DNA of 64,000 bases from contig RXIX01000002.1 in assembly GCA_003989075.1 (NCBI GenBank), forward strand, positions 1-64,000, read 5' to 3'. The notes beneath the pieces are model-generated. The model worked only from the letters and a program-made list of their open reading frames with translations. It had not been told where the DNA came from and made no database searches. The stretch is from Candidatus Competibacteraceae bacterium. GTDB lineage: Bacteria; Pseudomonadota; Gammaproteobacteria; Competibacterales; Competibacteraceae. This document shows, piece after piece, positions 16,336 to 41,065 of this stretch; the stretch's first letter is position 1, and each line of letters starts with the position of its first letter. Made by a program: the position numbers and the translations under genes.

Positions 16336-18639
16336 ATGCAGACGATGCCGCGTCGTTGGGCAATCCGGGTGCGTGGTCAGGTGCAGGGGGTCGGCTTTCG
16401 GCCTTTCGTTTGCCGGTTGGCGCGGCAGCGTGGTTTGAGCGGCGCGGTGGGCAACGATGGCGCTGGGGTGTGGATCGAGGTGCAGGGTCCATTGCCGCTG
16501 CTGCGTGATTTTGTGGCGGCTTTGCGGCAACCGCCGCCGCTGGCCTGTATTGCGGCCTTGCGGGTGCGGGCGCGACCGCTGTGTGTCGGCGAGAGCGGTT
16601 TTTTCATCGCGGCGAGTGGCGGTGGTGCAATCAGTGTCGAGATGCCGCCCGACACGGCGCTGTGTCCGGCGTGCCGGGCGGAATTGTTCGATCCGGCCAA
16701 TCGCCGCTGGCGCTATCCGTTCATTACCTGTACCGATTGTGGTCCACGCTACACCATCAGCACTGCCCTGCCCTATGACCGGTCACGCACCAGCATGGCC
16801 GGTTTTGTGCTGTGCGCGGCGTGCGCCGGTGAGTATCACGATCCCGATGATCGCCGTTTTCACGCCCAGCCCAACGCCTGTCCACGCTGCGGGCCGCGTC
16901 TGCGCCTACATGATGCTTCGGGCATGCTGCTGGCGGTGGATGATGTGATCGCGGCGGTGCTGGAGCTGTTGCGTGGTGGGGCAATTGTGGCGCTTAAGGG
17001 TCTGGGTGGTTTTCATCTGGCCTGTGATGCGACCAATGCGGCGACTGTGGCCAGTCTGCGCCAGCGCAAGCAGCGTGAGGCGAAGCCGTTTGCGTTGATG
17101 GCGGCGAATCGGGTGTCGCTGGCGCAGTGGGTTGAGGGTGATGCGGTGAGCTGGCGGTTGTTGCAGTTGCCGCAGCGGCCGATCGTGCTGTTGCGGCAGC
17201 GTCTGGACCGTGCGCGGCGGTTGCCTGGTATTGCGCCCGGTCTGGCTGATTTTGGAGTGATGCTGCCGAGCACGCCGTTGCAGGAGTTGCTGTTTCATGA
17301 GGCGGCAGGTCGGCCAGCGGGGTTGGCGTGGCTGGAGCAGCCGTGGCCGCTGCTGTTGGTGATGAGTAGCGCCAATCCGGGCGGTGAGCCGCTGGTGGTT
17401 GACGATGCTGAGGCTCTGCAGCGCTTGCGCGGTATTGCGGATGCGTTTGTGCTGCATGATCGGGCGATTGTGGCGCGTTGTGATGACAGTGTGGTGGCGG
17501 CTGATGGGGGTTTTGTGCGTCGGGCGCGTGGTTATGTGCCTGGGGCGATTCGTTTGCCGGATGCGGGACCGGCGGTGTTGGCGCTGGGTGGGTTTTTTAA
17601 GAATACCGTGTGCCTGACCCGGGGTGATTGTGCCTATCCGTCGCCGCATGTGGGTACGCTGGATAATGCGGCTGCCTGTCGGGCGCTGGAGGAGACGGTG
17701 GCGCATTTGCGTCGGGTGCTGGAGATTACGCCGGTGCGGATTGCCTGTGATCGACATCCGGATTTTCCGAGCAGCCGTTTGGCGTTGCGTTATGCGGCGG
17801 AGTGGGCGCTGCCGTGTATTGCTGTGCAGCATCATCATGCGCATGTGGCGGCGGTTGTGGCGGAGTGGGGCTTGCGTGGGCCGGTGCTGGGTTTGGCGCT
17901 GGATGGGGTTGGTCTGGGGGTGGATGGCGGTTTATGGGGTGGTGAGTTGCTGTGGGTGGATGGGGCGCGCTTTGTGCGTTGTGGGCATTTGCGGGAGTTG
18001 CCGTTGCCGGGTGGTGATCGGGCGGCGCGTGAGCCATGGCGGATGGCGGCGGCGGTTTTGTATGAGCTGGGGCGCGGTGCAGAGTTGGGGCGGTGGTTTG
18101 GGGAGCGGGCAGAGCTGATCGGGCAGATGCTGGCACGGGGTGTTGGGGTGGCGGTGACCAGTAGCGCGGGCCGGGTGTTTGATGCGGCTGCTGCGTTGCT
18201 GGGGGTGCGGGAGTGGAGTGCTTATGAGGGCCAGGCGGCGATGGAACTGGAGGCTTTGGCGTGTCGTTATGGGCCACTGGCGCCGCTGAGGAATGGGTTT
18301 CAGGTGGGTGAGGATGGGGTGTTGGATCTGTTGCAGTTATTGGATGAGTTGGCTGGGGATATGGCGGCGGATGCGGGCGCGGCGCTGTTGCATGCGACTC
18401 TGACGCTGGCTTTGTATAAGTGGCTGGAGTGGGCGGGCGGTCGCTGGGGTTTGCGGAGGGTGGTGTTGAGTGGTGGGTGTTTTTTGAATCGGTTGCTGGC
18501 TGTGTGTTTGCGGGAACGACTGGAGGCGGCTGGTTGGCAGGTGTTTACCGCTCGGCAGATGCCGCCGAATGATGGGGGTTTAAGTCTGGGACAGGCGTGG
18601 GTGGCGATGCAGATGACTGTGCCTGATGGGGTTCAGTAG
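16336..18639 (+). CDS. hypF: Carbamoyltransferase HypF
   Basis: A 767-residue enzyme that makes the cyanide ligand precursor of NiFe-hydrogenase from carbamoyl phosphate, acting with HypE. Domains in order are acylphosphatase (RVRGQVQGVGFRPFVCRLA near the start), two zinc fingers (CPAC...CTDCGP and CAAC...CPRCGP, about 105-190), a YrdC-like adenylation domain (about 200-385) and a Kae1-like C-terminal domain. The last has HHHAHVAAVVAEWGL, DGVGLGVDGGLWGGELLW and LSGGCFLNRLL. The ATG at 16336 is 5 bases after the hypB stop. No hypC, hypD or hypE follows. The next sequence belongs to the CRISPR island. Confidence 0.95.
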   Translation: MQTMPRRWAIRVRGQVQGVGFRPFVCRLARQRGLSGAVGNDGAGVWIEVQGPLPLLRDFVAALRQPPPLACIAALRVRARPLCVGESGFFIAASGGGAISVEMPPDTALCPACRAELFDPANRRWRYPFITCTDCGPRYTISTALPYDRSRTSMAGFVLCAACAGEYHDPDDRRFHAQPNACPRCGPRLRLHDASGMLLAVDDVIAAVLELLRGGAIVALKGLGGFHLACDATNAATVASLRQRKQREAKPFALMAANRVSLAQWVEGDAVSWRLLQLPQRPIVLLRQRLDRARRLPGIAPGLADFGVMLPSTPLQELLFHEAAGRPAGLAWLEQPWPLLLVMSSANPGGEPLVVDDAEALQRLRGIADAFVLHDRAIVARCDDSVVAADGGFVRRARGYVPGAIRLPDAGPAVLALGGFFKNTVCLTRGDCAYPSPHVGTLDNAAACRALEETVAHLRRVLEITPVRIACDRHPDFPSSRLALRYAAEWALPCIAVQHHHAHVAAVVAEWGLRGPVLGLALDGVGLGVDGGLWGGELLWVDGARFVRCGHLRELPLPGGDRAAREPWRMAAAVLYELGRGAELGRWFGERAELIGQMLARGVGVAVTSSAGRVFDAAAALLGVREWSAYEGQAAMELEALACRYGPLAPLRNGFQVGEDGVLDLLQLLDELAGDMAADAGAALLHATLTLALYKWLEWAGGRWGLRRVVLSGGCFLNRLLAVCLRERLEAAGWQVFTARQMPPNDGGLSLGQAWVAMQMTVPDGVQ

Positions 18640-18652
18640 GGGAGATTGGCTA

Positions 18653-18693
18653 GTCGCCTTCAATCCTTGTTGTATTGGATTGGGTATTCAAAC
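18653..18693. repeat. Single CRISPR-repeat-like sequence
   Basis: A 41-base stretch 13 bases past hypF contains CAATCC (18661-18666) and GGATTG (18677-18682) as an inverted repeat around a 10-base loop. It begins GTCGCCTT and ends ATTCAAAC. Read on the minus strand it contains GGATTGAAG, similar to the 3' part of many CRISPR repeats. Only one copy is seen, so it is at best a vestige. Confidence 0.3.
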
Positions 18694-18728
18694 CTCTCTA
18701 CTGCGGAGTCATCGGACTCGTACCCGAC

Positions 18729-18835
18729 CTTTTTTGACATTTTTACCCCCGAAAACGCGCGAAAAAGTCCTGAAACCAGCCTGCTTTACATCAATTTTTC
18801 ATATAAAAAATATTACAATCAATAAGTTGAAGAGG
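18729..18835. other. AT-rich leader-like region
   Basis: This stretch has a T-run at 18730-18735, then A-rich and T-rich blocks ending ATTACAATCAATAAGTTG near 18830. Its composition and last bases resemble CRISPR leaders. It has no reading frame of note and no repeats beyond it. The remaining sequence to 18955 shows no gene. Confidence 0.3.
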
Positions 18836-18955
18836 CACGGTATGATTCAGCCAATAATTTTTTCCTCAGCAGTGTTCCAGTAGGACCGGTATGAGTCTCT
18901 TTCCGACCACCTTGCAACGGACTAATCGCTAAGATCGTACTTTTTTTGAGACAAG

Positions 18956-19330
18956 CTACACCAATCGCAACCGAACAACCCGTGAAATACTCTCCTGATC
19001 GCGTCCGGACCCTCGCAGATACGGTGCACAATCTGCAGAATCAACAAAAGACTCTACAACCTCAAAGTACCCCTGAAAAATCCACTGCCTATTGATATTT
19101 TTAATAAATACTGGAATCGGCCTTGCTTGACTTACTAGACACTCTCCCGCCTGACGAACACTAGGACCATTACCACACAGAATGATACACGGTGCTTGTG
19201 GATTCATTTCCACTGTCAAACAGGCCGCTACTACAACTCCATCCTTGCAAGGCAGATACGTCTGCAAACTGCCACCACACTGTTCATGAATCTGCTCGCG
19301 AGAATAAGCATTACCAACAAAAAATACCAT
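18956..19330 (-). CDS. Unrecognised 124-residue protein at the end of the cas series
   Basis: I do not recognise this protein. The start at 19330 is supported by GAGGAAATGCC directly upstream, as good a ribosome binding site as any in the island. It is 49 bases past the cas4 stop on the same strand. The sequence is compact and folded-looking: MVFFVGNAYSREQIHEQCGG, then QTYLPCKDGVVVAACLT, a glycine/proline turn LCGNGPSV, IPVFIKNINRQWIFQGYFEV and a final strand VVRLRLV. It has no signal peptide or membrane segment. The alternating strands and the W-x-F-x-G-Y-F motif faintly recall PUA/SRA-like folds; this is a visual impression only. It could be a CRISPR accessory or an unrelated cargo gene. 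Confidence 0.6.
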   Translation of the reverse strand: MVFFVGNAYSREQIHEQCGGSLQTYLPCKDGVVVAACLTVEMNPQAPCIILCGNGPSVRQAGECLVSQARPIPVFIKNINRQWIFQGYFEVVESFVDSADCAPYLRGSGRDQESISRVVRLRLV

Positions 19331-19379
19331 GGCATTTCCTCGAATTTCTTATTTAGTGACAAATAGAGGCAAAAAGCAA

Positions 19380-21266
<1,887 letters not shown>

Positions 21267-21378
21267 ACCACATCCCTTAAAAAGAGGCAGATTGATCAAG
21301 TTGCCCGCAAATACTAAATTGCCAGCTTCCTGAAAAAAGGTAAAACCTGAATGAATTTTTAAAGAATAGACAGTTAAA

Positions 21379-40681: not shown

Positions 40682-41065
40682 TTAGAAGCGGCGACCGCCG
40701 CCGCCGCCGTAGCCACCACCGCCGCTACGCTTACCGCCGCCGCCGCCGTAGCCACCACCGCCGCCGCCGCCGTAGCCACCACCGTAGCCGCCGCCACCGC
40801 CGCCACGTTCACGTTCCTGCGGCGGACGGGCCTCATTCACAGTCAGGTTACGACCGCCGATCGAGTTGCCGTTCAAGGCGGCAATCGCAGCTTGCGCTTC
40901 CTGGTCGCTGCTCATCTCCACGAAACCGAAGCCCTTCGAGCGCCCCGAGTCGCGGTCGCGAATGACCTGGGCTGAAACGACCGTGCCATGGCTGGCGAAC
41001 AGTTGCTCCAGATCTTCGTTGCTAACGGCATAATTCAGGTTGCCCACATACAATTTCTTGCTCAT
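40682..41065 (-). CDS. RRM-type RNA-binding protein with glycine-rich tail
   Basis: A 127-residue protein. The start at 41065 follows GGAGAG and gives MSKKLYVGNLNYAVSNEDLE, with RNP2 (LYVGNL) and RNP1 (KGFGFVEM) of a complete RNA-recognition motif in residues 3-80. The tail after RPPQERE is almost only Gly, Tyr, Arg, Lys and Ser (GGGYGGG repeats), like plant and cyanobacterial glycine-rich cold-inducible proteins. It faces the cold-shock gene, and both are probable RNA chaperones. Confidence 0.93.
   Translation of the reverse strand: MSKKLYVGNLNYAVSNEDLEQLFASHGTVVSAQVIRDRDSGRSKGFGFVEMSSDQEAQAAIAALNGNSIGGRNLTVNEARPPQERERGGGGGGYGGGYGGGGGGGYGGGGGKRSGGGGYGGGGGRRF

What the first reader, a model, noticed from the sequence alone, without database searches (positions are those of the whole stretch)
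18956..19330. Unrecognised 124-residue gene as the last member of the cas operon
It has a strong ribosome binding site, lies 49 bases after cas4 on the same strand and encodes a compact protein that I cannot assign. A faint resemblance to PUA/SRA-like folds, which often recognise modified bases, would be notable next to a defence locus.
Basis: partly seen in the sequence, partly recalled or inferred. Interest (0 to 1): 0.55.

Follow-up and report, generated by a model that had tools for sequence, protein, structure and literature searches.

The report
Stand-alone SRA-fold protein beside cas4
The small unassigned gene after cas4 encodes a free-standing domain with the fold that many proteins use to recognise chemically modified DNA bases; it looks like a wandering defence-type gene that landed beside a CRISPR locus, not a standard part of CRISPR immunity.

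Summary
The ORF is real: minus strand 18956-19330, 124 aa, Shine-Dalgarno GAGG 7 nt before ATG, 49 bp after cas4. It has full-length homologues, and pairs within the family show dN/dS 0.10-0.23. It is a divergent relative of Pfam DUF6697, for which no paper was found.

It is not a conserved cas gene. None of 43 homologue loci carries a relative of 11 window cas proteins. Three relatives with 83-85% identical Cas1 lack it after cas4; two of these have a CRISPR array there. In the window the gene lies between cas4 and a leader with one decayed repeat; live arrays lie on other contigs.

Several divergent homologues sit by other defence systems: Ssp phosphorothioation, CBASS, a Drt8-like reverse transcriptase, a DpdF-like helicase. 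Two are fused to a restriction-nuclease-like domain (NOV_C). Best reading: a stand-alone modified-base reader, a mobile defence accessory captured at the array end of a cas operon. DNA binding and co-transcription are untested; the usual 5mC aromatic cage appears missing.

The parts
18956..19330 (-). 124-aa stand-alone SRA-fold protein, divergent relative of Pfam DUF6697
19336..19341 (-). Shine-Dalgarno GAGGAA, its GAGG 7 nt before ATG
18720..18872 (-). CRISPR leader remnant, homologous to the leader of this genome's own array on contig C36
   Evidence: local alignment score 123 against shuffle mean 22, maximum 32
18657..18693 (-). single decayed CRISPR repeat (31 of 37 to this genome's repeat, 29 of 37 to that of G007)
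   Evidence: 20-nt core exact, 0 expected in shuffles
19380..19988 (-). cas4
   Evidence: TIGR00372 2.4e-37
19985..20314 (-). cas2
   Evidence: PF09827 7.5e-18
20277..21299 (-). cas1
   Evidence: PF01867 3.9e-77

Best explanation
The gene encodes a single SRA-fold domain that most likely binds DNA and scrutinises a flipped, chemically modified base, as the recognition module of modification-dependent defence. It belongs to a patchily spread, DUF6697-related family that occurs alone, fused to a restriction-nuclease-like NOV_C domain, and beside several unrelated defence systems. In this genome it has landed, or been kept, between cas4 and the leader of a CRISPR array that has decayed to one repeat, where it could be translated from the cas transcript. 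It is not a conserved Cas protein. Shown here: the gene, its homology, its fold (by model), its placement and the lack of a conserved cas association. Inferred: DNA binding, base flipping, modified-base preference, co-transcription and a defence role.
For: Model mean pLDDT 94.7, pTM 0.88. The 11 Foldseek PDB hits below E 0.001 are all SRA proteins: SUVH5 and ScoMcrA; TagI follows at 3.1e-3. VIA Z 10.6, rmsd 2.7, 109 residues to SUVH5 SRA; the top 46 rows are SRA-bearing proteins (UHRF1/2, TagI, AspBHI, LpnPI, ScoMcrA, MspJI, PvuRts1I and others) and non-SRA rows start at Z 5.0. Fusions in L006 and L021 to NOV_C (5.1e-13, 1.3e-11; PDDEXK_5 1.8e-5 in L021), with the family domain recognised in L021 by profile at E 2.1e-12. 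Neighbours: SspA/B/C in L005, cyclase, E1-E2 and SAVED-HNH in L006, Drt8-like RT in L021, DpdF-like helicase 1.6e-77 in G020. Placement against relatives.
Against: No sequence-level SRA match: no Pfam hit for the window protein at E<=1 and hhalign to a bacterial SRA-HNH protein gave probability 0.9% or less. By hand alignment the two stacking tyrosines of SUVH5 fall on non-aromatic residues in 23 of 23 family rows, so a classical 5mC pocket is doubtful. Most homologues found are Burkholderiaceae copies beside chaperonin-type and other household genes, not defence genes. In this family of bacteria, of four copies one has an in-frame stop and one is a partial match ended by a stop, so the gene is dispensable there.
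Confidence: 0.6

Rival explanations
1. A true CRISPR accessory: the protein works with Cas1-Cas2-Cas4, for example by marking modified invader DNA as a source of spacers.
For: 49 bp after cas4, same strand, strong SD, no terminator-like site between; lies between cas4 and a CRISPR leader; GC content 46% like cas1 and cas4 (45%) and unlike the window (59%).
Against: 0 of 3 relatives with 83-85% identical Cas1 carry it; 0 of 43 homologue loci contain relatives of 11 window cas proteins; the array beside it has decayed to one repeat.
Confidence: 0.08
2. An SRA-fold protein whose job is no longer modified-base reading: a small housekeeping or regulatory nucleic-acid-binding protein, as the stable copies in Burkholderia suggest.
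For: Non-aromatic residues at the two cage positions in 23 of 23 rows; Burkholderia copies near chaperonin-type genes and under purifying selection.
Against: Fusion to a nuclease-like domain in two loci and placement by defence genes in four loci; acidic residue D/E kept at the position aligned with SUVH5 Asp418 in 20 of 23 rows (hand alignment).
Confidence: 0.24
3. A passenger gene with no selected role in this genome, on the way to decay.
For: In the same bacterial family 4 of 39 genomes have a match, one with an in-frame TAG and one ended by a TAA after a partial match; the neighbouring array is already a relic.
Against: The window copy is intact, full length, with a strong SD, and shares 60% identity with the intact copy of a relative.
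Confidence: 0.08

Closest known systems
SRA domains (SUVH5, UHRF1/2; prokaryotic TagI, ScoMcrA, AspBHI, LpnPI, MspJI, PvuRts1I)
   Same: Fold over the whole 124 residues; an acidic residue at the position aligned by hand with SUVH5 Asp418, and a glutamine (Q23) in the loop after the first helix, where SUVH5 has Gln392 (SUVH5 residues from passages of PMC4740795).
   Different: No Pfam SAD_SRA match; the positions aligned with SUVH5 Tyr416 and Tyr428 are not aromatic; shorter; no attached SET, RING or nuclease domain.
Pfam PF20411, DUF6697
   Same: 19 of 23 homologues hit it at E<=0.1, best 1e-6; RefSeq names the Methylibium homologue (45.5% identical over 97%) a DUF6697 family protein.
   Different: The window protein itself does not reach E 1; no function is attached to the Pfam family.
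Modification-dependent (Type IV) restriction enzymes of SRA plus PD-(D/E)XK layout (MspJI, AspBHI, LpnPI, PvuRts1I)
   Same: The relatives in L006 and L021 join the same domain to a NOV_C domain with a GYDL...EVKG motif (reading the motif as PD-(D/E)XK is recalled).
   Different: The window protein has no nuclease domain; its immediate neighbour is cas4.

Membership tests
SRA domain family | SRA/PUA-like beta-barrel fold over the full domain | tested here: met
   Foldseek E 4.5e-5 to SUVH5 SRA; VIA Z 10.6, rmsd 2.7, 109 residues; AlphaFold2 model, not an experimental structure
SRA domain family | Sequence signature (Pfam SAD_SRA PF02182) | tested here: not met
   no Pfam family at E<=1; PF02182 found no match in G000
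SRA domain family | Aromatic pair that stacks on the flipped base (SUVH5 Tyr416, Tyr428; passages of PMC4740795) | tested here: inconclusive
   T39 and L51 by hand alignment, non-aromatic in 23 of 23 rows of A5; no residue-level structural alignment was available
SRA domain family | Acidic residue reading the Watson-Crick edge (SUVH5 Asp418) | tested here: inconclusive
   D or E at position 41 in 20 of 23 rows, same hand alignment
SRA domain family | Binding of modified cytosine in DNA | not testable with these tools
   needs a binding assay
DUF6697 (PF20411) | Profile match over the curated cut-off by the protein itself | tested here: not met
   no hit at E<=1, none in G000 with PF20411
DUF6697 (PF20411) | Full-length homology to proteins that match the profile | tested here: met
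   homologue in G641 over the cut-off at 26.6 bits
Modification-dependent restriction endonuclease | Reader and nuclease domain in one protein | tested here: not met
   124 aa, the SRA fold fills residues 1-124; met only in relatives L006 and L021
CRISPR-associated (Cas) accessory protein | Conserved neighbourhood with cas genes | tested here: not met
   0 of 43 homologue loci; 0 of 3 relatives with the same cas locus
CRISPR-associated (Cas) accessory protein | Expression with the cas operon | not testable with these tools
   only spacing and the lack of a terminator-like site known

The most novel reading that the evidence does not exclude
A modified-base reader has been recruited into the Cas1-Cas2-Cas4 adaptation module: the SRA-fold protein, made from the cas transcript, would deliver modified phage DNA to Cas4 (itself a PD-(D/E)XK-type nuclease), biasing spacer capture towards phages that hide behind base modification; it would be a split-gene counterpart of the SRA-nuclease fusions seen in its relatives.
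Probability: 0.05. Interest if true: 0.88.

Novelty: new variant of a known kind. Interest (0 to 1): 0.48.

Why it matters
It gives an uncharacterised bacterial family (relatives of DUF6697; 0 papers hold the name) a fold and a testable function, and points to what looks like an unlisted SRA-like plus NOV_C nuclease layout beside CBASS and reverse-transcriptase defence genes. A stand-alone SRA reader with a non-classical pocket could recognise a modification other than 5mC. As a CRISPR story it is mostly a caution: adjacency to cas genes, even with a strong ribosome-binding site, does not make a Cas protein.

Tried and rejected
Rejected: (1) chance ORF: homologues and dN/dS say otherwise. (2) Conserved cas gene. 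(3) Phage origin: no match in 50,697 phage records, no relative in viral contigs by peptide patterns; the BFVD hit to an archaeal virus SRA protein shows only the shared fold. (4) Shared DNA flanks that would mark a mobile unit: blastn of 18501-19700 against fetched loci found, besides cas4 and repeat/leader matches, only 82 bp inside the gene in G020. (5) Sequence-only proof of SRA membership: hhalign against one bacterial SRA-HNH protein failed, and the PDB sequence search gave one chance hit at E 1.8. (6) A complete Dpd system in G020: only a DpdF-like helicase near an integrase-like gene was seen (integrase label recalled).

Limits: the cas test in 43 loci used 11 proteins of this window's cas region as queries and flanks of up to about 9 kb, shorter at contig ends; two of the 43 (L017, L022) are the same contig. 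Of those 11 queries, cmr5 and cmr4or3 are my labels and were not scanned. Gene calls for the neighbour scan were greedy longest ORFs of 150 aa or more, which can pick antisense frames in GC-rich DNA; 87 of the 119 listed proteins, from 10 of 13 listed loci, were put in (L023, L026, L049 and a few edge genes were dropped). In G001 the stretch after cas4 could be checked only over 784 bp to the contig end. How often a random gene lies near defence genes was not measured. Structure comparison gave ranges, not residue pairs, so pocket statements rest on a hand alignment.

Full report
The observation. The ORF lies on the minus strand at 18956-19330 and encodes 124 aa. A GAGG box lies 7 nt before its ATG. 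The stop of cas4 is 49 bp upstream, and no terminator-like site lies between on that strand. The upstream genes were recognised as Cas4, Cas2, Cas1, Cas6b, Cas3, Cas5, Cas7, Cas8b/TM1802 and Cmr6. The finding as described is there.

Homologues. tblastn found 13 of 72,556 plasmid records, 12 of them over at least 80% of the query, and none of 50,697 phage records. One scan of genome contigs gave 32 loci from 79 candidate stretches, mostly Burkholderia and Paraburkholderia. Whole-genome searches gave 4 of 39 genomes of the same family including its own, 1 of 369 of the class, its own only, and 3 of 398 of the phylum including its own. Within the family of bacteria, the copy in G018 is intact (60% identical), the G023 copy contains one TAG, and the G020 copy is a partial match ended by TAA. 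Six Burkholderiaceae pairs gave NG86 dN/dS of 0.10-0.23. Pfam DUF6697 is hit by 7 of 8 members of A1 and 19 of 23 of A5, but not by the window protein at E<=1. One paper search for the name DUF6697 found none.

Fold. A model from 23 aligned sequences has mean pLDDT 94.7 and pTM 0.88. Foldseek's 11 PDB hits below E 0.001 are SUVH5 SRA and ScoMcrA chains. VIA-align 2 gives Z 10.6 to SUVH5 SRA (rmsd 2.7, 109 residues, model 1-124), with SRA-bearing proteins filling ranks 1-46 down to Z 6.1 and other folds from Z 5.0. This stands well above the background described in that output. SRA domains in print flip 5mC or 5hmC into a pocket (passages of PMC4259335; of PMC7461809). In SUVH5 the base is stacked by Tyr416 and Tyr428 and read by Asp418, while Gln392 of the thumb loop fills the gap (passages of PMC4740795).

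Pocket. The bacterial SRA-HNH protein in L085 shows the motif GGYEDDEDFGDIIIYTGAGG with the same Tyr/+2 Asp/+12 Tyr spacing. Laying the family's CLTVEMNPQAPCIILCGNGP on it without gaps, anchored on the G-x-G turn, is my hand alignment. It puts T39 and L51 at the tyrosines and E41 at the aspartate. Across A5 these columns are aromatic in 0 of 23 and 0 of 23 rows, and D or E in 20 of 23; Q23, in the loop after the first helix, is Q in 20 of 23. The reading head may therefore be kept while the cage differs. Profile comparison could not confirm this alignment.

Not a conserved cas gene. Eleven proteins of the window's cas region were run against 43 homologue loci; the only matches at E<=1e-3 were to the window itself. 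Conversely, Cas1 relatives were sought in 39 genomes of the family: 9 matched including the own genome, 3 of them at 83-85% identity. In these three (L064-L066) cas4, cas2 and cas1 are 80-85% identical to the window's, and the gene is absent: the only tblastn match at E<=1 was a 27-residue chance piece in L066. In two of the three a CRISPR array begins after cas4, within about 60-180 nt; in L064 784 bp remain to the contig end and no repeats were found.

The site. Downstream of the gene, before hypF on the other strand (label recalled), the window holds one CRISPR repeat core: a 20-nt exact match at 18659-18678 with none expected in shuffles, 29 of 37 to the G007 repeat where the next best place in the window scores 22. 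The same genome has arrays with this repeat at the ends of contigs C36 and C40, four and seven matches, plus single matches on C31 and C85. Positions 18872-18720 align with the leader of the C36 array at score 123 against a shuffle mean of 22 and maximum of 32. So the order is cas4, this gene, leader, one decayed repeat: the gene stands at the array end of the operon, and the array beside it has been lost while others elsewhere remain.

Context of relatives. Four divergent or non-Burkholderia homologues are near defence genes. In the Azospirillum plasmid locus L005 the gene lies 93 bp after a GIY-YIG nuclease gene (RefSeq name; no Pfam hit) and near SspA, SspB and SspC (4.9e-104, 4.3e-100, 3.5e-129). 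In the Massilia plasmid locus L006 it is fused to NOV_C and next to a cyclase, an E1-E2 protein and a SAVED-HNH effector, a CBASS. In L021 (G596) the same fusion lies about 1.3 kb from a Drt8-like reverse transcriptase (3.1e-133). In G020 the broken copy is directly followed by a DpdF-like helicase (1.6e-77). Against this, the PADLOC scan of 87 neighbour proteins from 10 loci had hits tracing to few members: that helicase (the DpdF, PsyrT and C3a193 models), a GlgB-like protein in G018 (C3a214), and one REase_II hit in a member that I did not trace. The Deinococcus match has no listed defence gene, Methylibium has DNA ligase D next door, and Burkholderia copies sit near chaperonin-like genes (label recalled).

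Fusion. L006 and L021 are alike over their whole length, with the family domain first and a shared GYDL...EVKG stretch in the second half. NOV_C (5.1e-13, 1.3e-11) hits the second half of both, PDDEXK_5 (1.8e-5) and AHJR-like REase (0.0027), each below its curated cut-off, that of L021. The family profile recognises the first half of L021 at E 2.1e-12. A reader domain joined to a PD-(D/E)XK nuclease is the layout of the MspJI and PvuRts1I enzymes (passages of PMC4259335). A paper search for at least two of DUF3883, modification-dependent and SRA listed 12 of 102 papers, all 12 with 0 occurrences of DUF3883. The list was not exhaustive, so novelty of the fusion is likely but not shown.

Verdict. 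The protein is a stand-alone SRA-fold domain (about 0.93 sure), not a conserved Cas protein (about 0.9), and most likely a modified-DNA reader of general anti-phage use (about 0.6). The CRISPR address is probably incidental, though co-expression with cas4 is possible and a recruited role cannot be excluded.

Noticed in passing
18657-18872: Relic CRISPR leader with a single decayed repeat beside the cas operon, while arrays with the same repeat lie at the ends of contigs C36 and C40 of the same genome.
   Followed up: yes
L006:5959-6711 and L021:8390-9130: DUF6697-like domain fused to a NOV_C nuclease-like domain, beside CBASS and near a Drt8-like reverse transcriptase; possibly an unlisted modification-dependent restriction enzyme.
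   Followed up: partly
L066:10039-10119: Two repeat-core matches 58 bp apart between cas6 and cas1 in G014, away from the main array; its cas1 relative also carries one in-frame TAA.
   Followed up: no
L084:5095-5183 and L083:5302-5336: Isolated CRISPR-repeat-like sequences on contigs C85 and C31 of the own genome, the latter at the 3' end of a hydrogenase-like gene (gene label recalled).
   Followed up: partly
L065 (G007): cas1, cas2, cas4, cas6 and cmr6 are 71-84% identical to the window's but cas3, cas5, cas7 and cas8 only 21-34%: the interference genes appear to have been swapped between otherwise orthologous loci.
   Followed up: no
40687-40819: Short GC-rich direct repeats reading like a glycine-rich protein tail.
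   Followed up: no
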